From Labrys wisconsinensis (lineage in GTDB: Bacteria; Pseudomonadota; Alphaproteobacteria; Rhizobiales; Labraceae), in the NCBI RefSeq assembly GCF_030814995.1, contig NZ_JAUSVX010000028.1:22820-86819 (forward strand): DNA of 64,000 nt, given 5' to 3'. Every line of letters starts with the position of its first letter. Within the stretch, counting starts at the first letter, position 1. The notes beneath the pieces are model-generated. The model ran no database searches. It saw only the letters and a program-made list of their open reading frames with translations, and was not told the origin of the DNA. A program made the translations under genes and the position numbers. This document shows positions 7,198-36,393 of this stretch, piece after piece.

Positions 7198-7581
7198 ATG
7201 GCAGTAGACCTTTCGATGCCGATCCTGGTGGTCGACGATTACCAGACCATGATCCGCATCATCCGCAACCTGTTGAAGCAGCTCGGCTTCGAGGATGTGG
7301 ACGACGCCTCCGACGGCTCGGCGGCCCTGAACAAGCTCAAGGCCAAGAAGTACGGCCTGGTCATCTCCGACTGGAACATGGAGCCGATGACCGGCTACGA
7401 GCTGCTGCGCGAGGTGCGCTCCGACGACCAGCTGAGATCCACCCCATTCATCATGGTCACCGCCGAATCGAAGACCGAGAACGTCATCGCCGCCAAGAAG
7501 GCCGGCGTGAACAACTACATCGTCAAGCCGTTCAACGCCCAGACGCTCAAGTCGAAGATCGACGCCGTCTTCGGCGCCTGA
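7198..7581 (+). CDS. cheY: CheY-like single-domain response regulator
   Basis: A 127-residue receiver domain without an output domain, the form that diffuses to the flagellar switch protein FliM. Key residues are present: the acidic pair in LVVDDYQ (D13-D14), the phospho-acceptor aspartate in ISDWNMEP (D58), the T of MVTAES and the lysine of YIVKPF. The start at ATG 7198 follows GGGAG by eight bases; GTG at 7195 is possible. The gene is followed seven bases later by a CheZ-type phosphatase. This pair and the absence of other chemotaxis genes nearby suggest that the main flagellar and che clusters lie elsewhere. Confidence 0.93.
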   Translation: MAVDLSMPILVVDDYQTMIRIIRNLLKQLGFEDVDDASDGSAALNKLKAKKYGLVISDWNMEPMTGYELLREVRSDDQLRSTPFIMVTAESKTENVIAAKKAGVNNYIVKPFNAQTLKSKIDAVFGA

Positions 7582-8283: not shown

Positions 8284-9147
8284 CTACCAGACGAGGTGCG
8301 GCATCGCCCAGTCCGGCGCCACCCCCTGCTCCGCCAGGAAGGTGCGCAGCGCCGCCTCGTCGAGCGCGGCGCCGTGGCCGGCCTCGAGCGCATGGATGCC
8401 GCCGGTGACGAACAGCGCGCCGCAGCCGATGGCGGCGGCGCCGGCAAGGTCGGTGCGCACGGAATCGCCGATCGCCAGCACCCGGCCGGGCTCGACCCGG
8501 CGCCCCAGCGCCGTCTCCACCACCGCGAAGCCGGCATCGTAGATCGGCCTGTGCGGCTTGCCGCAGGTGACGACCGGGCCGCCGAGCGTCTCATAGGCGT
8601 CGGCGATGGCGCCGGCGCAATAGATCATGGTGCCGCCGCGCTCGACCACCAGGTCGGGATTGGCGCAGATCATCGGCACGCCGCGGGCGAGGAAGCGGCG
8701 CAGCATCGGCAGATAGGTCTCGGGCGTCTCCACCGTGTCGTCGAACAGGCCGGTGCAGACGATCACCTCGGCCGCCTCCTCGCCGGCGAAGCGGATGTCG
8801 TGGCCCTCGAACAGCGGCCGGTCGCGCTCCGGCCCGAGATGGAACAGCGCCTTGCCGGCCTGCGCCGCCACGTGGCTGCGCGCCACGTCGCCCGACGTGA
8901 CGATGGCGTCCCAGGCCCGGCGCGGCAGGCCGAGGCGGTCGAGCTGCGGGGCCACGCTCCCGGCGGGGCGCGGCGCGTTCGACACCAGCACCACCACGCC
9001 GCCCCGGTCGCGGAAGGCGGCCAGCGCCTCGGCCACGCCGGAGAACAGGGCGTGGCCGTTGTGGACCACGCCCCAGATGTCGCAGAACAGGGCGTCGTAG
9101 GCGCCGGCGACCTCGCCGAGGCCGGTGATGATGCGGGTCATGATCAT
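8284..9147 (-). CDS. HAD-superfamily hydrolase, subclass IIA (TIGR01459-like)
   Basis: A 287-residue phosphatase-like protein of the HAD IIA branch (NagD/PGP-like). Motif I is ALFCDIWGVVHNG, with the nucleophile D23; motif II is VLVSNAPR; motif III/IV is the GDSVRTDLAGA segment near the C-terminus. The subgroup is widespread in alphaproteobacteria and no substrate is established. Two ATG codons are close together (9147 and 9141). It lies 19 bp downstream of the second M16-family gene on the same strand, so it may be the last gene of that transcript. Confidence 0.87.
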   Translation of the reverse strand: MIMTRIITGLGEVAGAYDALFCDIWGVVHNGHALFSGVAEALAAFRDRGGVVVLVSNAPRPAGSVAPQLDRLGLPRRAWDAIVTSGDVARSHVAAQAGKALFHLGPERDRPLFEGHDIRFAGEEAAEVIVCTGLFDDTVETPETYLPMLRRFLARGVPMICANPDLVVERGGTMIYCAGAIADAYETLGGPVVTCGKPHRPIYDAGFAVVETALGRRVEPGRVLAIGDSVRTDLAGAAAIGCGALFVTGGIHALEAGHGAALDEAALRTFLAEQGVAPDWAMPHLVW

Positions 9148-27475: not shown

Positions 27476-28012
27476 ATGATCCATCGATCCCCCATGCTCC
27501 GCCCCTTGCGGCAGGGCGAGGCGGAGGCGATGCGGCGGATCGAGACAGCCGCACGCGGGCGCTATGGCAGCCTGGCGGGCTTCGAAGGCGTGGTCGCCGC
27601 GCCGGCCATCGCCGCCGAGCGCTTTCTGGTCGGCGAGACGCTGGTCGCCGAGGCCGGGGGCTCTGCGGTGGGCTATGTGCTGATGCAGCCGCTCGACGGC
27701 CTGCTCTACGTCGCCAACATCGCGGTCCTGCCGGAGGCCTCGGGCCTCGGGCTCGGAGCGGCGCTGATCGAGGCTGCCCGGGGCCGCAGCCGAGCGCTCC
27801 GGCTCGGCGGCCTCATGCTCACCACCTTCCGGACCCCGCCCTGGAACGGCCCCTGGTTCCGCCGCCTGGGATTTTCGCCGATGCCGCCGGAGCGGATCGG
27901 CCCCGGCCTCGCGGCGATCCTCGACCGCCATGCCAGCTTCCTGGACATGAGCCGGCGCGAGACGCTGTGGTCGCCGGCGCGGCCCGGTCAGGGCGCGGGT
28001 TCGGCGAGGTAG
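27476..28012 (+). CDS. GNAT-family N-acetyltransferase
   Basis: A 178-residue acetyltransferase. The acetyl-CoA binding motif region is VANIAVLPEASGLGLGAALIEAARG, with the R/QxxGxG/A pattern modified to SGLGLGA. A perfect GGAGG lies six bases before ATG 27476. The substrate is unknown. It is divergent from the GGDEF gene and is followed by the EcfG-type promoter of the KGG protein. Confidence 0.9.
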   Translation: MIHRSPMLRPLRQGEAEAMRRIETAARGRYGSLAGFEGVVAAPAIAAERFLVGETLVAEAGGSAVGYVLMQPLDGLLYVANIAVLPEASGLGLGAALIEAARGRSRALRLGGLMLTTFRTPPWNGPWFRRLGFSPMPPERIGPGLAAILDRHASFLDMSRRETLWSPARPGQGAGSAR

Positions 28013-28087
28013 CGGCGTCACGGTGCCGGGGTCGGGACGGGTTCCCGGCGCCCCTCTTCCGTATCGAAAAAGTCTCGGCATCGTCGG

Positions 28088-28112
28088 AACAGTCCCGGAC
28101 AGGCCCCGTTCG
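28088..28112 (+). promoter_or_regulatory. EcfG (general stress) promoter for the KGG-repeat gene
   Basis: GGAAC (28088-28092), a 16-bp spacer and CGTT (28109-28112) match the alphaproteobacterial EcfG consensus exactly. Transcription would begin about 28119, giving a leader of some 25 bases that contains the GAGGAG ribosome binding site of the KGG gene. Confidence 0.85.
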
Positions 28113-28144
28113 TCCGGCAGGGGGTAGCCATAGAGGAGACGATC

Positions 28145-28357
28145 ATGGCAGAGCAGCAACGTGGTGGATCCGGCAACTTCGCCAACGACCCCAAGCGCGC
28201 GGCGGAGGCGGGGAAGAAGGGCGGCGAGCACAGCCATGGCGGCCAGCAGAGCCAGAGCGGCTCCGACAAGACGCAGCACGGCGGCGGCAATTTCGCCGAC
28301 GACCCGAAGCGGGCCTCCGAGGCCGGCAAGAAGGGCGGCGAGCACGGCCGCTCCTGA
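28145..28357 (+). CDS. KGG-repeat stress-induced protein
   Basis: A 70-residue, very hydrophilic protein built of two copies of the KGG stress motif: GGSGNFANDPKRAAEAGKKGG at the N-terminus and GGGNFADDPKRASEAGKKGG at the C-terminus. The family (GsiB and conidiation-protein-like) is induced by starvation and general stress and is thought to act as a disordered protectant. GAGGAG lies before ATG. Its EcfG promoter agrees with a general-stress role, and a perfect 10-bp stem terminator follows 14 bp after the stop. Confidence 0.92.
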   Translation: MAEQQRGGSGNFANDPKRAAEAGKKGGEHSHGGQQSQSGSDKTQHGGGNFADDPKRASEAGKKGGEHGRS

Positions 28358-28370
28358 GGCCGGACGAGCG

Positions 28371-28395
28371 GAGGGGCCGGGCTTTCCGGCCCCTC
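28371..28395 (+). terminator. Hairpin terminator after the KGG gene
   Basis: GAGGGGCCGG and CCGGCCCCTC form a perfect 10-bp stem with a five-base loop (GCTTT). No long T-run follows, so this is a GC-rich hairpin rather than a textbook intrinsic terminator. Confidence 0.7.
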
Positions 28396-28465
28396 ACCGT
28401 CGCATGCGCCGCCCCGAAGGAGCGGCGGACCAGGGCTGAGCAGGGTCTCGCGAACCTGCTACATC

Positions 28466-28559
28466 TAGAGCAAAGCGCGTTTGGACGGAAACGCTGCTTT
28501 GCTCCAGCTCTTTGTTTCGACGCGTCTTTGCGATGCCTGGCGAGTCCGCCAAATCGCAA
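28466..28559 (+). repeat. 94-bp dispersed intergenic repeat, copy 1
   Basis: A 94-bp sequence recurring in opposite orientation at 48494-48587 with four mismatches. The left part forms a hairpin (AGCAAAGCGCGTTT pairs with AAACGCTGCTTTGCT, allowing one extra base) and the right part contains TTGTTTCGACGCGTCTTTGCG. It lies in the 299-bp gap between the KGG and ku genes. It has no open frame, and I see no recognisable RNA family. Confidence 0.88.
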
Positions 28560-28582
28560 GAGGCTCCAGGAATCCGAGCAGC

Positions 28583-28613
28583 ATTGATTTTGCACGGGAC
28601 ATGCAAGATCAAT
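28583..28613 (+). repeat. 12-7-12 inverted repeat upstream of ku1
   Basis: ATTGATTTTGCA and TGCAAGATCAAT are separated by seven bases and have one mismatch in the arms. A second copy, with perfect arms, is at 40302-40332 upstream of the antiporter gene, and both share a flanking GAGCAGC. It lies 44 bp before the ku1 start. The dyad could be an operator or a small mobile repeat. Confidence 0.75.
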
Positions 28614-28656
28614 CGTGGCGAAAGCCACGAGAAGCTGCCTTGGCATGGAGGAAGGC

Positions 28657-29505
28657 ATGGCCCCGCGGGCGAGCTGGAGAGGCGTCCTCAAGGTGGCGGA
28701 CATCGTCTGCCCGGTGGCGCTCCATGCCGCGGCCTCGACCGCGGAGCGCATCGCCTTCCATATCCTCAACCGCAAGACCGGGCACCGCGTCCACCGGCAG
28801 TTCGTCGACGCGCAGACGGAGAAGCCGGTCGCCGCGGAAGACCAGGTCAAGGGCTACCAGACCCCGCAGGGCGAGCTCGTGCTGGTGGAGCCCGAGGAGA
28901 TCGCCGCCGCGATCCCCGAAAGCGACAAGACCCTCGACGTCGAGGCCTTCGTCGCCTGCGACGCCGTCGACACGCTCTATCTCGACCGGCCCTATTATCT
29001 CACGCCCGCTGCGCCGGACGATGCCGAGGCCTACGGGCTGCTGCGTGAGGAGATGCAGGCCCGGAAGGTGGCCGCCCTGGCCCGCACCGTCCTGTTCCGG
29101 CGGATGCGCACCCTGCTGATCCGGCCACAGGGCGAGGGCTTCATCGCCGACACGCTCAACTTCGACCATGAGGTCGGGTCGCCGGACGAGGCCTTCGCGG
29201 ACATCCCGAAGCCGACGATCGCCAAGGAGATGCTCGACCTCGCCCGGCACATCATCGACACCAAGATGGGCGCCTTCGACCCCGCGGCCTTCGACGACCG
29301 CTACGAGGCTGCGCTGGCCGACCTGGTCAAGGCCAAGCTCGAGGGGCGCAAGATCACGCCGCCGAAGCCGCGGGCGCCGACCGGCCCGAGCGACCTTCTG
29401 GAAGCACTGCGGCGCAGCGCCGGCGCCGGGACGCCGCCGCCGCGATCCGGCAAGGCCGGGACCGGTGCCCGGAGCTCGTCCGCGCCCCGGCGCAAGGCGG
29501 GCTGA
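28657..29505 (+). CDS. ku: Ku-family DNA end-binding protein (first copy)
   Basis: A 282-residue homodimeric Ku that encircles DNA ends and recruits LigD in bacterial non-homologous end joining. The N-terminus (MAPRASWRGVLKVADIVCPVALH) and the segments NRKTGHRVHRQFVD and RPYYLTP are typical, and the C-terminal tail is basic (SSAPRRKAG). ATG 28657 follows GGAGGAAGGC. It is convergent with a second ku gene 16 bp away. The two copies differ widely in sequence, especially after residue 40, so they are old paralogues rather than a recent duplication. No EcfG promoter was found in front of this copy. Confidence 0.94.
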   Translation: MAPRASWRGVLKVADIVCPVALHAAASTAERIAFHILNRKTGHRVHRQFVDAQTEKPVAAEDQVKGYQTPQGELVLVEPEEIAAAIPESDKTLDVEAFVACDAVDTLYLDRPYYLTPAAPDDAEAYGLLREEMQARKVAALARTVLFRRMRTLLIRPQGEGFIADTLNFDHEVGSPDEAFADIPKPTIAKEMLDLARHIIDTKMGAFDPAAFDDRYEAALADLVKAKLEGRKITPPKPRAPTGPSDLLEALRRSAGAGTPPPRSGKAGTGARSSSAPRRKAG

Positions 29506-29521
29506 TGCCGGCGCCCGGCGC

Positions 29522-30304
29522 CTAACCAGCCCGGCCCGCCAGGCTGCGGCGCAAGGCCTCGGTGAGGTCGATGACGTTGTCCGCCCTGCCGGCCCTTCGC
29601 CCGGCGCGCTTGCCGGCCTTCCGCTTGGCGGCGATCAGCTCCAGCAGCTTCTCCTGCACGGGATCGCGCATCATCTCCGCCGTCCAGGGCTGCGTGCGCT
29701 GCTCGATCAGGCTCGCCATGGCCCGCTTCGCCGCGGCGTCGGCCTTCTCCGGCTCGATGCCGGCGAAATAGGCCATCGCGTCGCGCACCTCGTCGCCGTA
29801 GCGCAGCGTCCAGAGCACGATGCCGCGATCACGCGGCTCGAGCATCACGGCGCGCTCGCGCCGATAGAGCACCAGGCGGGAGATGCCGACCACGCCGGTG
29901 ACCCGCATCGCCTCGCGAATCACTGCGAAGGCCTCCTCCCCGACCTTGTCGTCGGGAACGAGGAAATGCGGCGTGTCGTACCAGATCCAGGCGATCGATT
30001 CGCGCGGCACGAACATGTCGATGTCGATGGTCCGCGTGCTGTCCAGGGCGACGGCGTCGAGCTCGTCGTCCTCCAGCATGACATGGTCGTCGTCGCCGCG
30101 CGGATAGCCCTTGACCTCGTCCGCGTCGGCCACGGGCTTGCCGGTCTCGGCGTCGACATAGCGGGCCTGGACGCGATGGCCGGTGGCGCGGTTGACGGTA
30201 TGGAAGCGCAGCTTGTCGCCCTCCGAGACGGCGGGCAGCATGGCGACGGGGCAGGTCACCAGCGAGAGTTTCAGATAGCCCTTCCAGAAGGATCGCGGCG
30301 CCAT
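29522..30304 (-). CDS. ku: Ku-family DNA end-binding protein (second copy)
   Basis: A 260-residue Ku with N-terminus MAPRSFWKGYLKLSLVTCPVAML and the conserved FHTVNRATGHRVQARYVD. The C-terminus is Lys/Arg-rich (AAKRKAGKRAGRRAGRADN). Bacterial Ku proteins use such tails for DNA threading and LigD contact. GGAG lies eight bases before ATG 30304. A matching EcfG promoter is at 30434-30459 and two inverted repeats lie in the leader, so regulation is distinct from the convergent ku1. In rhizobia a ku and ligD gene set is known to be under the general stress sigma factor, which fits. Confidence 0.95.
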   Translation of the reverse strand: MAPRSFWKGYLKLSLVTCPVAMLPAVSEGDKLRFHTVNRATGHRVQARYVDAETGKPVADADEVKGYPRGDDDHVMLEDDELDAVALDSTRTIDIDMFVPRESIAWIWYDTPHFLVPDDKVGEEAFAVIREAMRVTGVVGISRLVLYRRERAVMLEPRDRGIVLWTLRYGDEVRDAMAYFAGIEPEKADAAAKRAMASLIEQRTQPWTAEMMRDPVQEKLLELIAAKRKAGKRAGRRAGRADNVIDLTEALRRSLAGRAG

Positions 30305-30325
30305 CGCGGGGTCTCCGTTCGCCCA

Positions 30326-30359
30326 GCGCGTGATCGCTTCAACTGAAGCGATCACGCGC
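30326..30359 (-). promoter_or_regulatory. 34-bp perfect inverted repeat in the ku2 leader
   Basis: Two 16-bp arms, GCGCGTGATCGCTTCA and TGAAGCGATCACGCGC, are separated by AC with no mismatch. It lies 22 bp before the ku2 start codon and, with the second dyad at 30392-30412 (GCGAACCG-N5-CGGTTCGC), sits inside the predicted EcfG transcript. It may be an operator or a translation-controlling hairpin. Confidence 0.7.
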
Positions 30360-30433
30360 ACTATCTCTTTGCGTTTACGCATTGTCTTGACGCGAACCGA
30401 GCGCCGGTTCGCTGGAAAATGCTCTGGTCTCCA

Positions 30434-30459
30434 AACGCGCCGCCGCAACCTGCGGTTCC
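30434..30459 (-). promoter_or_regulatory. EcfG promoter for ku2
   Basis: On the minus strand GGAAC (30459-30455), a 17-bp spacer and CGTT (30437-30434) match the EcfG consensus. The promoter begins directly downstream of the ligD stop and predicts a ku2 leader of roughly 120 bases containing both dyads. Confidence 0.8.
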
Positions 30460-30467
30460 CGGACCTC

Positions 30468-33101
30468 TCAGGCGGCGAGCTTGCCGCGGCCGAGCCGCTG
30501 GATCGCCTTGTCCAGCGGGCGCGCACCCTCGTCATAGTCGGCCCAGGCATGGCTTCCCGCCAGCAGCCCGGCGGCGGTGCGCAGGGTGAAGCGGGCGGGA
30601 TCGAGATCGGCGCGCACTTGCGCCCAGGTCAGCGGCATGGAGACGGTGGCGCCCGGCCGGGCGCGCGGCGACAGCGGCGCCACCGCGGTGGCCATGCGGT
30701 CGTTCCTGAGATAGTCGAGGAAGATGCGGCCGGTGCGCAGCTTCTTGGCCATGTTGACGACGTAGCGCTGCGGCTCGGCACGGGCGACCTCGACGCACAG
30801 CGCGCGGGCAAAGGCCTTGGCCTCGGCCCAGCCCAGGGCGCTCCGGCCGGGCTTCAGCGGCGTCACCACGTGCAGGCCCTTGCCGCCGGTGGTCTTGCAG
30901 AAGGCGACGAGGCCGAGCGCCTCCAGCCGGTCGCGCATCTCCTGCGCCGCTTCCACCACGGCGGCGAAGGCCACCTCCGGGCCGGGGTCGAGGTCGAAGA
31001 CCAGGCGGCCGGGGCGCTCGAGCTCGTCCGGCGCGCAGTTCCAGGGGTGCAGCTCCAGCCCGCCGCTCTGGGCGACCGCAGCCAGGCCCTCGACCCGGTC
31101 GATCTGGAGATAGGGCTTGCGGTCGCCGGCCACGGTCACGACCTCGATCAGGTTCGAGGTGCCGGGCATGGCGTGGCGCTGGAAGAACCGCTCCTTGCCG
31201 TCGATGCCGTCGGGCACGCGCAGGATCGAGCAGGGGCGCCCCTTGAGATGCGCGATCATCCAGGGGCCGACGGCCTCGAAATAGCGGGCGAGCTCGAGCT
31301 TGGTGACCGGCCGGCCGTCGCCGGCATCCGGCCAGAGCGGCTTGTCCGGCCTGGTGATGACCACGCCCATGACGACGGAGCCGCCCGCCTCGGGCTTGCC
31401 CGCCACGGCCGCGGCAGGATCGGGCACGTCGGCGCCCGCCACCGGCGCCTCGGCCTGCACCTCGGCAGCGGGCTTGTCCTCGCGCAGCCCCTTGAACGCG
31501 GCCTGGCGGACATTGCCGCCGGCGGTCCAGCCGGCGAAGGCGATCTCGGCCACCAGCTCCGGCCTGGTCCAGTGCAGGTTGCGCTCCTTGCGCGGCGCGC
31601 CGACGCCGGTGAAGGGCGAGGTGTCGGTCTCCAGCGCCCGGAGGCGCGGCAGCAGGGTCTTGACCTTGTCGGCGCCGTAGCCGGTGCCGACCCGGCCGAC
31701 ATAGACGAAATGCCGGCCGCGGTGGACGCCGACCAGCAGCGAGCGGAAGGCGCCGTCCGTGGTCGACCAGCCGCCGATCACCACCTCGTGGCCGGCGCGG
31801 CATTTCGACTTGGCCCAGCTGTCGCTGCGGCCCGAGACATAGGGCGCGTCGAGCCGCTTGGAGATGATGCCCTCCAGCGACAGGCGGCAGGCCGACTTCA
31901 GCACCGCCTCGCCGCCGGTCTCGAAATGCTCGACATGGCGGATGCGGGCGGCGGCCTCCCCGTCCAGCGCGGCAAGGCGGTGCTGCAGGCGCGCCTTGCG
32001 CTCGTGCAGCGGCAGCGGCCTGAGATCCGCGGCGCCGTCGAACAGGAGATCGAAGGCGTAGAAGACGAGGTCGCCGGTCTGCTGCTCGGAAATGGCCGCC
32101 TGCAGGGCGGCGAAGTCGGGCACGCCGTTCCCTGCCAGCGCCACGATCTCGCCGTCGACGATGAGGTCGGGCAGCGCGGCGGCCGCCCGGGCGATGGCCG
32201 GGAACCTCGCCGTCCAGTCGAGCCCCTTGCGGGTCTTGAGCGTGACCGCGCCGTCCTCCACCCGGAGCTGGACGCGGTAGCCGTCGAACTTGATCTCGTG
32301 GCCCCAGCCCGGACCGGCCGGCGGCCGTTCCAGGGTCTGGCACAGCTGCGGCGCGATGAAGTCGGGCATGGCCGCCTTCCCCGGTGCGGCCCTGCCGCGG
32401 GGCCGGCGCGAGGAGGCACGCCTGGCCGCGACCTCGGGCGGGGCGCTGCTGTCCCACACCGCGTCCGGGTCGAACTGCCGGCTCGCCTGCATGAACGGCG
32501 CGGGCGCCGGACCTTCGCCGGCGGCGATGGCGGCCATGCCGCGGCTGGAGGCGACGGAACGGTCCTCGGCGAGCAGCGGGTCGTTCTCGCCCTCGTGGAC
32601 GAAGGCGTCGCGATGCTTGATCAGGAGCCAGTTGGTGCGCTTGGAGCCGGCGCGGTCATGCCTGAGGCGCACCAGCACCCAGCTGCCGCGCAGCCGCTCG
32701 CCGTCCAGCGTGAACTTGAGCTCGCCCTCCGCCAGCATCGTCTCCGGCGAGAGGCGGCCTTCCGGCGCCCAGAATCCGCGGTCCCAGAGCTGCACCGTGC
32801 CGCCGCCATACTGCCCCTTGGGGATCACGCCCTCGAAGTCGCCATAGTCGAGCGGATGGTCCTCGACCTCGACCGCCAGGCGCTTGTCGTGCGGATCCCG
32901 CGAGGGGCCGCGGGTGACGGCCCAGGACTTGAAGACGCCGTCGAGCTCGAGCCGGAGGTCGTAGTGCAGGCGCGTGGCATCGTGCTTCTGGATGACGAAA
33001 CGCCGGCGGGCACCCGCGGCGACCGGCGCCGCGCCGCTCGGCTCGGCGGTACGCGAAAAATCCCGCTTCGAGCGGTAGCGCGCCAGCTTCTCCTCGGCCA
33101 T
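30468..33101 (-). CDS. ligD: ATP-dependent DNA ligase D (phosphoesterase-ligase-polymerase)
   Basis: A three-domain 877-residue LigD that trims, fills and seals double-strand breaks with Ku. Residues 25-180 are the 3'-phosphoesterase, with H40, H46, D48 and H82 in the positions of the known metal and catalytic residues. The ATP-dependent ligase follows, with nucleophilic K271 in EIKFDGYRV. The C-terminal primase-polymerase carries the metal-binding aspartates in [10 protein letters not shown] and the downstream FLDYLRND motif. The start at 33101 ([14 protein letters not shown]) opens the conserved phosphoesterase domain. The order phosphoesterase-ligase-polymerase is the common Hyphomicrobiales form. 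It is followed by ku2 on the same strand, with a 163-bp gap. Confidence 0.96.
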
Positions 33102-33205
33102 CCCGGTTCCTCCGCGATCCAGCCCGGCCCGGGGCAGCCGGGGCCATCCCGCCAGGGCGAGGACGAGCACGCCTATCCGGGCCGGGCGGATCCGACCCGG
33201 TGTGA

Positions 33206-33239
33206 CATAGAGCGGCCGGGCCGCCCGGCAAGCTCTATG
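33206..33239. promoter_or_regulatory. Hairpin in the ligD / small-ORF divergent region
   Basis: CATAGAGC and GCTCTATG flank GCCGGGC-C-GCCCGGC, making one compound 34-base stem-loop about 105 bp upstream of the ligD start in the divergent intergenic region. No EcfG site was found for ligD, so this may be the regulatory feature on its side. Confidence 0.5.
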
Positions 33240-33320
33240 CCGGAGCGGGCTTCGGCCCTATCTTGAAGACGATGCAATGCCTGCCGCCGGGGTCCGGATC
33301 CGGCGCCGAAGGGGGTGCCC

Positions 33321-33512
33321 ATGGCCGATTTCGCAGCTCTCGCCGAACTCGACGCCCGTATCGCGACCCTGCGCGAGAACATCCGCGACCTGACCGAGCA
33401 GGCCGCCGCCGCATCGGGCGCGGCGAGCGAGACGCTCCTGGCGGACCGGATCGCCGACCAGGAGGCGAAGCTGGCGAACCTGCTGGCCGAGCGGCAGGCA
33501 CTGGCGCAGTAG
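33321..33512 (+). CDS. Small coiled-coil hypothetical protein
   Basis: A 63-residue protein (MADFAALAELDARIATLRENI...) that is almost entirely helical with heptad-like spacing of Leu and Ala and many charges, consistent with a short coiled coil. GGGGGT precedes ATG 33321 at a spacing of four. It ends 66 bp before the topoisomerase IB gene. No family is recognised. The location between DNA-repair and topology genes hints at a DNA-metabolism accessory role, but this is unproven. Confidence 0.65.
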   Translation: MADFAALAELDARIATLRENIRDLTEQAAAASGAASETLLADRIADQEAKLANLLAERQALAQ

Positions 33513-33543
33513 ACGCGGCCCACTCCCCGGACCGGGACGGCCG

Positions 33544-33568
33544 GGAACAGACCGCTGCCGCGGGCGTT
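33544..33568 (+). promoter_or_regulatory. EcfG promoter for topoisomerase IB
   Basis: GGAAC (33544-33548), a 16-bp spacer and CGTT (33565-33568) match the EcfG consensus. The expected transcription start, about seven bases after CGTT, falls almost on ATG 33578. That would give a leaderless or near-leaderless mRNA, or the true start codon is a little downstream (GTG 33584). Confidence 0.75.
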
Positions 33569-33577
33569 GCCAGGGGC

Positions 33578-34669
33578 ATGAGCGTGCCCCTGCCCGCCGA
33601 GTTTCCGGATTCTGCGCCCATCCTCGTCCGCTCGACCGCCACCGCGGCAGCCGGAGCCCTCGCGGAGGCGGTGCGACGCGCCGGGCTGCGTCATGTCGCC
33701 GTCGACGCGCTGACGATCACGCGCCGGCAAGCCGGCAAAGGGTTCAGCTATCGCGACGCCGCCGGCCGCATCGTCCGCGACGCGGGGGTGCTGTCGCGCA
33801 TCCGCGCGCTCGCCATCCCCCCTGCCTATGTCGACGTGCGCATCGCCGAAGACATGCAGGCCCATCTCCAGGCGATCGGCCGCGACGAGGCCGGGCGCAT
33901 CCAGCACCGCTACCATCCCGACTGGGACGCGGTGCGCGAGGAGCGCAAGGTCTCCCGTCTCGCCGCCCTGATCGACGCGCTGCCGCGGATCCGGGCGAGG
34001 GTGCGGCACGATCTCGCCTCGGCCCGCCTCGATCGGACCAAGGCGCTGGCCTGCGCGGTGGCGCTGATCGACGAGGCCCATATCCGCATAGGCTGCGAGG
34101 CCTATGCCAGGGCCCATGGCAGCCGCGGCGCCACCACGCTGCTCAAGCACAATGCCGCGGTCCGGGGCGAGCGCATCGACCTGACGTTCCGCGGCAAGGG
34201 CGGCAAGACCGTCAGCAGCGGCATGCGCGAGCCGAAGCTGGCACGGGCGCTGAAGCGCATCGGCACCCTGCCGGGCCGCCGGCTGCTGCAGTTCCGCGAC
34301 ACCGACGGCCGGGTGCGGCCGATCACGGCCGCCGACGTCAACGCCTATCTCCGGCGCGTCGCCGGCAAGCCGGTGACCGCCAAGGACTTCCGCCTGCTCG
34401 GCGGCAGCGCCGCGGCCCTGGAGCACCTGGCCGCCATCGAGCCGGCCGCCAGCGAGGCAGCCCGGCGCCGGCAGCTGGCCGCCGTGATGCGGATGGTCGC
34501 CGAGCACCTCGCCAACACCCCGGCCGTGACCCGCAAGAGCTATGTGCATGCGGTGGTGGTCGACGCGTTCGCCGGCGGGACGCTTGCCGCCGCCTATCGG
34601 GCGGCGCGCGGCGCACGGCTGCGGCGGCGGGTGGAGAACGCCCTCGGCCGCCTGGTCTCCATGCGTTGA
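33578..34669 (+). CDS. DNA topoisomerase IB (poxvirus-like)
   Basis: A 363-residue type IB topoisomerase that relaxes supercoils through a 3'-phosphotyrosine. The catalytic tyrosine is Y322 in NTPAVTRKSYVH, and the active-site basic residues are K210 in GKGGKT and R272 in TAKDFRLLGG. The R of EAHIRIGCEAYA replaces the usual RVGN(E) with RIGC. The N-terminal domain has SYRDAAGRIV and IPPAYVDVRI, typical of the bacterial group. The start at 33578 (MSVPLPAEF) has AGGGG only two bases away, and the predicted EcfG promoter would start the transcript at or near the ATG. Confidence 0.93.
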   Translation: MSVPLPAEFPDSAPILVRSTATAAAGALAEAVRRAGLRHVAVDALTITRRQAGKGFSYRDAAGRIVRDAGVLSRIRALAIPPAYVDVRIAEDMQAHLQAIGRDEAGRIQHRYHPDWDAVREERKVSRLAALIDALPRIRARVRHDLASARLDRTKALACAVALIDEAHIRIGCEAYARAHGSRGATTLLKHNAAVRGERIDLTFRGKGGKTVSSGMREPKLARALKRIGTLPGRRLLQFRDTDGRVRPITAADVNAYLRRVAGKPVTAKDFRLLGGSAAALEHLAAIEPAASEAARRRQLAAVMRMVAEHLANTPAVTRKSYVHAVVVDAFAGGTLAAAYRAARGARLRRRVENALGRLVSMR

Positions 34670-34704
34670 GGCCGGCCCGGACCGCCGGCGGCCGGCACCT
34701 CGAG

Positions 34705-34729
34705 GGAACCTTCGATCACGGCGCACGTT
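34705..34729 (+). promoter_or_regulatory. EcfG promoter for the 90-residue hypothetical gene
   Basis: GGAAC (34705-34709), a 16-bp spacer and CGTT (34726-34729) match the EcfG consensus. The transcript would begin about 34736, some 26 bases before ATG 34762. Confidence 0.8.
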
Positions 34730-34761
34730 GGACATGCTCGATCTCCGGCGAGCACAGGACG

Positions 34762-35034
34762 ATGACCGACGGCCATACCCGCGGCTATTTCGACCCCGAT
34801 CAGCTGACGATCATGGCCGAGGCCATGGCAAAGGCGTTCTCCTCGACGCTGGCGGCCGGGCGGGTGGAGGACCAGCCGGATATCGCCAAGGTCCGCCTCG
34901 CCCGCACCATCATGTCGATCGTCGAGCAGGGCGAGCGCGACCCGGAGACCATCGTCCGCCTCGCCCTGGACCGGCTGGGCTGCCCATCGGCGGAGCGGGA
35001 CGACGAGGCGTTGTCGGGCGGCACGCCCACTTGA
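34762..35034 (+). CDS. Hypothetical protein with EcfG-type promoter
   Basis: A 90-residue protein (MTDGHTRGYFDPDQLTIMAEAMAKAF). The middle is a helix, the LARTIMSIVEQGERDPETIVRLAL segment is amphipathic, and there are no membrane helices or cysteines of note. I do not recognise the family; similar small proteins occur in Hyphomicrobiales. It is monocistronic between its own promoter and the MFS pseudogene, 95 bp downstream. The promoter suggests a general-stress protein. Confidence 0.7.
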   Translation: MTDGHTRGYFDPDQLTIMAEAMAKAFSSTLAAGRVEDQPDIAKVRLARTIMSIVEQGERDPETIVRLALDRLGCPSAERDDEALSGGTPT

Positions 35035-35129
35035 TTTCGGAAACGATCTCTTCCTAATATGGCGCCGACGCTTCGCCCTTCGGGGCCGCGCGACGCCCCG
35101 CCTTGCAGAAGCTCCCCCGAGATCCGATC

Positions 35130-36312
35130 ATGACCGCTGCAGCGCTCGACGACCCGGCCGACCGGCGGCCCGTCTCCGCCCGGTTGACCCTGCTCCTGGC
35201 CATGGCCTGCGGCCTGCTGGCGGCCAATGTCTACTACGCCCAGCCCCTCGCCGGCCCGATCGGCGCGGCGCTCGGCCTTTCTCCCGCCGCCACCGGGCTG
35301 GTCGTCACGGTGACGCAGGCCGGCTACGGCCTCGGCCTGCTCCTGATCGTGCCGCTCGGCGACCTCGTCGAGAACCGGCGCCTGGTGCTGGCGCTGATCG
35401 GCGCCGCCGCCCTGGCGCTCTCGGGTGCGGCGCTGTCGACCCATCCGGCCCCCTTCCTCGCTTCGGCCTTCCTCATCGGCCTCGCGTCGGTGGCGATCCA
35501 GGTGCTCGTCCCCTACGCCGCGCACATGGCGCCGGCCGCCATCCGCGGCCAGGTGGTCGGCAATGTCATGGCCGGGCTGATGCTCGGCATCATGCTGGCG
35601 CGCCCGGCGGCGAGCTTCCTGGCGCAGCTCACCTCCTGGCACGTCGTCTTCGTCGCCTCGGCCGGCGTGATGATCCTGCTGGCCCTGACGCTCGCCCTGA
35701 CGCTGCCGCCCCGCCGGCCGGCCTCGAGGCTGGGCTACGGCGCCCTGCTGGCTTCGATGGGCCGCCTCGCCCTGACGACGCCGGTGCTGCAGCGCCGGGC
35801 GGCCTACCACGCCTGCCTGTTCGGCGCCTTCAGCCTGTTCTGGACCACGACGCCGCTGCTGCTGGCCGAGGTCTTCCATCTCACGCAGGGCGGCATCGCC
35901 CTGTTCGCCCTCGCCGGCATCGCCGGGGCGATCGCCGCCCCGATCGCAGGCCGGGTGGCGGACCGCGGCTGGAGCCGCCCGGCGACCGTCCTCGCCATGC
36001 TGGCCGTGCTCGGCGCCTTCGCCATGACCCATCTCGCGCCGGCCGGCTCGCCGCTCGCGCTCGGCGGCGGCGGCGATCCTGCTCGATTTCGGCGTCGCCG
36101 CCAACGTCACCCTCGGCCAGCGCGCCATCTTCGCCCTCGGGGCGGAGCACCGCAGCCGGCTCAACGGGCTCTATATGGCGACCTTCTTCGCCGGCGGCGC
36201 CATCGGCTCGGCCCTGGGCGGCTGGGCCTATGCCCAGGGCGGATGGATGCTCGCTTCCGCCATCGGCGGCGCCCTGCCGCTCGTCGCGCTGATCTATCTG
36301 GCGACGGAATAG
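35130..36312 (+). pseudogene. MFS transporter gene disrupted by a one-base frameshift
   Basis: A twelve-helix major facilitator protein of the YnfM/AraJ-like efflux group. Residues 1-310 read normally (NVYYAQPLAGPIGAALG, NRRLVLALIGAAALALSG, GRVADRGW). In the GC-trinucleotide run at about 36058-36075 the frame shifts, and the remaining helices ([19 protein letters not shown], then [20 protein letters not shown]) are found in the +1-shifted frame, ending at TAG 36310-36312. Without the shift the protein would be about 394 residues. It could be a true pseudogene or an extra base in a GCG repeat. Confidence 0.82.
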
Positions 36313-36393
36313 CCGGCTCAGCGCTGTTCTCGTACGGAGAACCGCATTCTTAACCTGTCCGGCGCTAGGGTCGCCCGTCGCCCGGACAGAGCA

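What the first reader, a model, noticed from the sequence alone, without database searches (positions are those of the whole stretch)
28088..34729. Cluster of EcfG stress promoters over a double-strand-break repair and topology island
Four promoters fitting GGAAC-N16/17-CGTT lie in 6.6 kb: before the KGG gene, ku2, topoisomerase IB and a 90-residue hypothetical gene. Non-homologous end joining (two ku, ligD), topo IB and a stress protectant are all here. By base-composition arithmetic such an exact motif pair should turn up only about once in the whole window by chance, so four in one block, all correctly oriented and upstream of genes, points to one general-stress regulon unit. EcfG control of a ku gene has precedent in Sinorhizobium; inclusion of topo IB and the small hypothetical genes looks new.
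Basis: partly seen in the sequence, partly recalled or inferred. Interest (0 to 1): 0.85.

Follow-up and report, generated by a model that had tools for sequence, protein, structure and literature searches.

The report
Stress-controlled DNA-break repair gene island
Four exact matches to the promoter signal of the alphaproteobacterial general stress response sit in one 6.6-kb block, before a DNA end-joining gene (ku), a topoisomerase gene and two small genes, and would likely switch them on together under stress; in relatives the same kinds of genes lie beside genes for stress regulators.

Summary
The four GGAAC-N16/17-CGTT sites are the only ones in the window and point at KGG, ku2, topoisomerase IB and a 90-codon ORF. 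The genome encodes PhyR, NepR and an EcfG-type sigma factor, with the exact motif on both sides of that divergent locus. Conservation is strong: the exact motif precedes 45 of 80 ku2 orthologs, 43 of 77 ku1 orthologs and 15 of 42 topoisomerase IB genes (window included in the last); permuted decoys average below one. Same-genus genomes carry larger stress islands: G004 has phyR, ecfG, KGG, ligD, topIB and a ku within about 23 kb; G001-G003 have an EcfG-like sigma gene between topIB and ku1-ligD.

Corrections: ku control is experimentally known, and EcfG-dependent topoisomerase IB is published for Sphingomonas melonis Fr1 (PMC6599016), so neither is new. Here ku1, ligD and the 63-residue gene have no recognisable site, although relatives of ku1 and ligD mostly look wired to EcfG. 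Genome repeats fill the ku1 leader and separate the ku2 promoter from its start codon. The 90-codon ORF has no homolog, so its site cannot be checked by conservation. Sigma-factor dependence is inferred, not shown.

The parts
28086..28110 (+). EcfG-type promoter match (N16) before the KGG gene
   Evidence: exact motif; 34 nt between CGTT and ATG, with an AGAGGAG ribosome-binding-like stretch
28145..28357 (+). KGG-repeat small protein gene (70 aa)
   Evidence: Pfam KGG PF10685, E 7.6e-13; 78% identical to the KGG protein in the G004 stress island
28465..28644 (.). interspersed repeats filling the ku1 leader
   Evidence: genome search with 28400-28656 gives 43 matches in G000, the window's own included, mostly to 28465-28565 and 28565-28638; 40 of 136 candidates were scored, so a lower bound
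28657..29505 (+). ku1 (start may be 28645 or 28657); no EcfG-type site found
   Evidence: TIGR02772 Ku_bact, 252 bits; no loose motif in 28350-28660
29522..30304 (-). ku2
   Evidence: TIGR02772 Ku_bact, 273 bits
30325..30427 (.). interspersed repeat between the ku2 promoter and its start codon; holds a 15-bp perfect hairpin (30326-30359)
   Evidence: 31 further matches above 80 bits in G000 (40 of 51 candidates scored); leader RNA fold z-score -3.3; hairpin also
30434..30459 (-). EcfG-type promoter match (N17) before ku2
   Evidence: exact motif; 129 nt between CGTT and ATG; lies between the ligD stop codon (30468) and ku2
30468..33101 (-). ligD; no EcfG-type site found
   Evidence: DNA ligase D TIGR02776, 715 bits; no loose motif in 33095-33330
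33321..33512 (+). 63-residue conserved hypothetical gene; no EcfG-type site found
   Evidence: 408 homologs, of which the best 120 were listed; the few given names are 'hypothetical' or stray automatic labels; no loose motif in 33095-33330
33544..33568 (+). EcfG-type promoter match (N16) before topoisomerase IB
   Evidence: exact motif; 9 nt before ATG 33578; 14 of 41 homologs also carry it
33578..34669 (+). topoisomerase IB gene (true start may be further downstream, e.g. GTG 33671)
   Evidence: Pfam Topoisom_I and Top1B_N_bact; same-genus homologs start near residue 33-34 of this frame
34705..34729 (+). EcfG-type promoter match (N16) before the 90-codon ORF
   Evidence: exact motif; 32 nt between CGTT and ATG
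34762..35034 (+). 90-codon ORF of unknown function without homologs
   Evidence: only itself found in the search of about 5.8 billion proteins; no match in the 59 other genomes

Best explanation
This block is likely a small general-stress-response island: four exact EcfG-type promoter matches stand before KGG, ku2, topoisomerase IB and a 90-codon ORF, and are predicted to be fired together by EcfG. Proposed chain: stress phosphorylates PhyR, PhyR takes NepR away from EcfG, and EcfG-RNA polymerase starts transcription at GGAAC/CGTT (this chain is established for the class, inferred here). Ku2 would then load on broken ends for LigD to join, topoisomerase IB would relax supercoils, and the KGG protein would act as a protectant (inferred). 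Shown here: the sites, the regulator genes, the conservation before ku and topIB genes, and larger stress islands in the genus. Also shown: repeats fill the ku1 leader and lie between the ku2 promoter and its start; that these have weakened an ancestral stress control of ku1 is inferred.
For: Sites: four exact matches, shuffle mean 0.24. Regulators: NepR, PhyR and an ECF sigma factor by Pfam at L153 (G000:C1), with exact motifs on both sides of the divergent regulator promoters (L153 7432-7456 and 7466-7490). Conservation: exact motif within 150 nt before 45 of 80 ku2 orthologs and 43 of 77 ku1 orthologs (window excluded; loci are the best 80 of 550), against a mean of 0.15 (maximum 9) and 0.14 (maximum 4) for 319 decoys with both words changed; CGTT to ATG median 26 and 36 nt. 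topIB: 15 of 42, window included, against 359 decoys with mean 0.15 and maximum 3. ligD: 9 of 68 have an own exact site and 47 of 68 start within 250 nt after a same-strand ku. KGG: exact before 3 of 8 KGG genes, window included. Genus: 13 exact sites in a 31-kb stretch of G004, decoy mean 0.61, maximum 4, with phyR, nepR, ecfG, KGG, ligD, topIB and a ku; an EcfG-like sigma gene in the islands of G001-G003. Literature: Ku and Topoisomerase IB EcfG-dependent, ku upstream region validated by beta-galactosidase, in S. melonis Fr1 (PMC6599016, passages); ku-ligD in the regulon of S. granuli TFA (PMC7083833, passages).
Against: No transcription data. The genome-wide excess is modest in G000 (106 against 72); for SGTT the backward pattern is commoner in G001-G003 (172 v 329, 166 v 299, 172 v 263) and about equal in G004 (152 v 156). 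A cluster this tight arises somewhere in 0.7% of random genomes. In the G001-G003 islands exact CGTT sites number only 2, 2 and 1, against decoy maxima of 2, 3 and 2; enrichment there needs GGTT to be allowed. ku2 in G001-G003 and topIB in G003 have no such site nearby. 27 of 42 topIB genes lack the exact motif and 19 of 80 ku2 orthologs lack even a loose one. The topIB site leaves almost no leader at the likely start. ku1 and ligD have no site. The site before the 90-codon ORF rests on the match alone.
Confidence: 0.82

Rival explanations
1. Only the ku2, topIB and KGG sites are real EcfG promoters; the site before the 90-codon ORF is a chance match, and that ORF may not be a gene.
For: The ORF has no homolog in the search of about 5.8 billion proteins nor in 59 other genomes; the backward control gives 72 chance-like sites genome-wide.
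Against: The exact site is correctly oriented and 32 nt before the ATG, and the 122-codon open frame that holds the ORF has coding-like third-position GC of 0.89.
Confidence: 0.25
2. The cluster is a chance concentration of motif look-alikes in a GC-rich genome and the genes are not co-regulated.
For: Backward control 72 against 106 genome-wide; scan probability 0.7% rather than vanishing; no excess of SGTT sites over the backward pattern in G001-G004.
Against: Conservation before ku and topIB orthologs far above decoys; stress-island context in G004; published dependence of ku and topIB in other genera.
Confidence: 0.04
3. Stress control reaches ku1 by read-through from the KGG promoter, so KGG-ku1 forms one stress operon, as KGG-ligD might in G004.
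For: KGG and ku1 are on the same strand about 290 nt apart; in G004 an exact site precedes KGG, followed after about 260 nt by ligD on the same strand.
Against: The intervening stretch holds a GC-rich inverted repeat at 28371-28395 (seen by eye; not listed as terminator-like) and genome repeats; no operon data.
Confidence: 0.35

Closest known systems
EcfG general-stress regulon of Sphingomonas melonis Fr1 (PMC6599016, passages seen)
   Same: Ku gene and Topoisomerase IB gene both EcfG-dependent with GGAAC-type promoters; the ku upstream region was validated with a reporter
   Different: Transcript numbers #1102 and #1831 are far apart; here ku2, topIB and KGG share one 6.6-kb block
EcfG1/EcfG2 regulon of Sphingopyxis granuli TFA (PMC7083833, passages seen)
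   Same: GGAAC-N16-CGTT motif; ku-ligD in the regulon
   Different: Main text has 0 occurrences of 'topoisomerase' and of 'KGG'
Stress-inducible NHEJ of Sinorhizobium meliloti under RpoE2 (Dupuy et al. 2019, NAR; title seen in reference lists, paper not held, content recalled)
   Same: ku genes under the EcfG-type sigma factor (recalled)
   Different: No topoisomerase island recalled
Heat-induced ku and ligD of Mesorhizobium loti MAFF303099 (PMC3989490, passages seen)
   Same: Three of four ku homologs and one of three ligD induced by heat shock
   Different: Sigma-factor dependence of these genes not shown in the passages

Membership tests
EcfG (general stress response) regulon | PhyR, NepR and EcfG present in the genome | tested here: met
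   NepR 63.5 bits in G000; PhyR and ECF sigma domains by Pfam; the sigma factor passes only a general NCBIfam model (PRK12547, 243 bits) and is called EcfG from its place beside nepR and phyR
EcfG (general stress response) regulon | GGAAC-N16/17-CGTT upstream in the right orientation | tested here: met
   four exact sites; none for ku1, ligD or the 63-residue gene
EcfG (general stress response) regulon | Distance to the start codon like that of known targets | tested here: inconclusive
   KGG 34 nt and 90-codon ORF 32 nt fit; ku2 129 nt and topIB 9 nt deviate, against medians of 26 and 36 nt in ku relatives
EcfG (general stress response) regulon | Site conserved before orthologs | tested here: met
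   exact motif: ku2 45/80, ku1 43/77 (window excluded), topIB 15/42 and KGG 3/8 (window included); the 90-codon ORF has no orthologs
EcfG (general stress response) regulon | Transcription depends on EcfG | not testable with these tools
   needs an ecfG or phyR mutant
Bacterial NHEJ (Ku/LigD) | Ku and three-domain LigD | tested here: met
   TIGR02772 for both ku; LigD with phosphoesterase, ligase and primase-polymerase domains
Bacterial topoisomerase IB | Topoisom_I catalytic core and Top1B_N_bact | tested here: met
   PF01028 and PF21338 above cut-off
KGG stress proteins | KGG repeat motif | tested here: met
   PF10685, 48.9 bits, two stretches

The most novel reading that the evidence does not exclude
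Bacteria of this genus keep DNA end-joining, topoisomerase IB and a stress sigma factor in one physical stress island. In the window's genome that island has been broken up and partly rewired by interspersed repeats: they filled the ku1 leader and put a hairpin leader on ku2, leaving Ku2 as the only Ku with a recognisable stress promoter.
Probability: 0.4. Interest if true: 0.6.

Novelty: new member of a known kind. Interest (0 to 1): 0.5.

Why it matters
It turns scattered single-species reports (ku, and once topoisomerase IB, in EcfG regulons) into a measurable pattern across alphaproteobacteria, and shows that end joining, topoisomerase IB and stress regulators can be physically linked. That makes one question directly testable: do stressed cells switch to end joining and supercoil relaxation together? 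The repeats at both ku genes are a natural experiment in losing or altering that control.

Tried and rejected
Genome-wide motif counting as the main proof was rejected: the backward pattern is not a neutral control in this genus. A first ligD test looked at the wrong stretch because the query began 23 codons too early, giving 1 of 71 and 0 of 12; the corrected test gave 9 of 68, and the earlier figures are withdrawn. The ku tallies (89 of 160) mix both paralogs under both queries and include the window; replace them. Decoys reached 13, but those were near-shifted readings that keep one of the two words; with both words changed the maximum is 9 for ku2 and 4 for ku1. Whether EcfG sites cluster round ku loci class-wide: 96 non-ku exact sites in 80 loci against 120 decoys with mean 31.5 but one at 105, and backward pattern 34; suggestive only. 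topIB lies within the held flanks (up to 10 kb) of ku in only 4 of 80 other ku loci, so the ku-topIB linkage is not class-wide. Pfam on 41 neighbours with a site (of 50 listed; 8 ligD-like genes and one 1083-aa ORF left out) found two catalases, two DUF72, one DUF892 and one further ligase among the 25 of 52 families shown; most families occur once. Rfam gave nothing for 27900-35200 and no sigma-70-like promoter was found in 28000-35200. Literature searches: EcfG+topoisomerase IB 1 paper, general stress response+topoisomerase IB+PhyR the same 1, EcfG+ligD 1, EcfG+KGG 0, EcfG+genomic island+PhyR+NepR 0, NHEJ+Sinorhizobium meliloti+RpoE2 1, a CRISPR review not read; these cover open-licence papers only. 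PMC3073932 and PMC4814048 were searched for terms and gave nothing of use.
Full report
WHAT IS THERE. The pattern GGAAC-N16/17-CGTT occurs four times in the 64-kb window, all between 28086 and 34729. With the likely start codons each site is intergenic: between the GNAT gene and KGG, between ligD and ku2 (minus strand), between a 63-residue gene and topoisomerase IB, and between topoisomerase IB and a 90-codon ORF. Gene identities were checked with Pfam and NCBIfam: KGG, two Ku, a three-domain LigD and topoisomerase IB. The 63-residue gene belongs to a family of at least 408 proteins, the listed ones unnamed or with stray labels; the 90-codon ORF has no relative in the two searches made.

CHANCE. 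Dinucleotide shuffles of the window average 0.24 matches. In the 8.93-Mb genome there are 106 matches against 72 for the backward pattern. Some four of 106 random points fall within 6.64 kb in 0.7% of simulations. Within the island there are 4 exact sites; 319 decoys with both words permuted average 0.13, maximum 2; the rest of the window has none.

REGULATOR. The genome encodes NepR, an ECF sigma factor and PhyR in the canonical divergent order, with an exact site facing each way between them (L153 7432-7456 minus, 7466-7490 plus). This serves as an internal positive control for the motif in this organism. The sigma factor passes a general NCBIfam model, PRK12547; calling it EcfG rests on its place beside nepR and phyR.

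CONSERVATION. From 80 ku loci in genome records with organism titles (the best 80 of 550; a few genomes give two loci), the exact motif stands within 150 nt before 45 of 80 ku2 orthologs and 43 of 77 ku1 orthologs; with any N[GA]TT -10 box and N15-18 spacing, 61 of 80 and 76 of 77 (window excluded). The CGTT box ends a median of 26 nt (ku2) and 36 nt (ku1) before the start codon, while the spacers differ. Decoys with both words changed average 0.15 and 0.14. For topoisomerase IB, 15 of 42 genes have the exact motif, the window's included; 359 decoys average 0.15, maximum 3 (two of the 15 sites lie 278-297 nt upstream of the reference residue). For ligD, 47 of 68 start within 250 nt after a same-strand ku and 9 of 68 have an own exact site; eight of those nine are the closest relatives of the window's ligD (64-68% identity) and have it 45-48 nt before the start. 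Eight distinct KGG genes, the window's included, were examined by eye: three have the exact site and at least six a site ending in NGTT.

GENUS CONTEXT. In G004, one 31-kb stretch holds 13 exact sites (decoys mean 0.61, maximum 4). Within about 23 kb of it lie genes for PhyR and an ECF sigma factor, NepR, KGG (78% identical to the window's), LigD (70%), topoisomerase IB (62%), a DUF892 protein and a further, shorter Ku; its ku1 and ku2 orthologs are elsewhere. In G001-G003 topIB, ku1-ligD and ku2 lie together, and an EcfG-like sigma gene lies between topIB and ku1 (94% and 92% identical to the G001 protein; Pfam; NCBIfam matches below the curated cut-offs), itself preceded by an exact site in all three (L146 7555, L147 11687, L148 8394). 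The G001 stretch also encodes CsbD and DJ-1/PfpI proteins. Exact sites in these three 11.5-kb islands are only 2, 2 and 1 (decoy maxima 2, 3, 2); if GGTT is allowed as -10 box they hold 10, 9 and 9 sites against -35 decoy means of 0.59, 0.34 and 0.38, maximum 3 each. There ku1 has a GGTT site but ku2 has none nearby. In G000 the core regulators are on contig C1 and the window's block on C28.

WHAT DEVIATES. ku1 has no recognisable site even with a loose motif, although 76 of 77 orthologs have at least a loose one. Its leader consists of interspersed repeats; the genome search returned 43 matches, the window's own included. ku2 keeps the promoter, but a second repeat family occupies 30325-30427, exactly between promoter and start codon; 31 further matches above 80 bits exist. 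The leader RNA folds with a 15-bp hairpin, z-score -3.3. ligD also lacks a site. So of the NHEJ set only ku2 carries a predicted EcfG promoter here. That the repeats destroyed or altered earlier control is inferred from the relatives.

HOW IT LIKELY WORKS. The PhyR-NepR-EcfG switch is established knowledge for the class. Under stress EcfG would start transcription at the four sites. Ku2 with LigD would seal broken ends, topoisomerase IB would relax supercoils around repair, and KGG proteins are named by Pfam as stress-induced. None of this was measured here.

WHAT IS KNOWN. In Sphingomonas melonis Fr1 both Ku (#1102) and Topoisomerase IB (#1831) are EcfG-dependent, with motifs 30 and 24 nt from the coding start, and the ku upstream region was confirmed with a beta-galactosidase assay (PMC6599016, passages). 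Sphingopyxis granuli TFA has ku-ligD in its regulon (PMC7083833, passages). Three of four Mesorhizobium loti ku genes are heat-induced (PMC3989490, passages). The Sinorhizobium work is cited from reference lists and memory, as the paper is not held. The physical linkage with the regulators in the genus was not found in print by the searches, which are limited to open-licence papers.

Noticed in passing
window 35130-36353 (+): MFS transporter-like ORF whose C-terminal part looks out of frame by eye (arginine- and glycine-rich from about 36030), suggesting a frameshift or sequencing error.
   Followed up: no
window 28465-28644: Two adjoining interspersed repeats (about 100 and 74 bp) with many copies genome-wide; one further copy lies elsewhere on the same contig (C28:71307-71406).
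   Followed up: partly
window 30325-30427: Another repeat family, about 100 bp, ending in a perfect 15-bp palindrome, with 31 further matches above 80 bits in the genome.
   Followed up: partly
G000:C11:205550-205993 (L216): A second sigma-like gene, 37% identical to the EcfG-like paralog of G001; possibly another EcfG paralog. A Pfam scan of the locus stretch I named gave nothing, perhaps through a wrong frame or strand.
   Followed up: partly
L149:8466-9086 (G004): A short 206-residue Ku next to topoisomerase IB whose Ku domain match covers only profile positions 77-173 of 190; it has an exact EcfG-type site at 9118-9142 before it.
   Followed up: no
L146, L147, L148 (G001-G003): Many GGAAC-N16-GGTT sites, some in divergent pairs about 80 bp apart, suggesting that GGTT may be a common -10 box in these relatives.
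   Followed up: partly
80 ku loci L031-L110: Genes near ku that carry exact EcfG-type sites include catalases, DUF72 and DUF892 proteins, hinting at stress islands round ku beyond this genus.
   Followed up: partly
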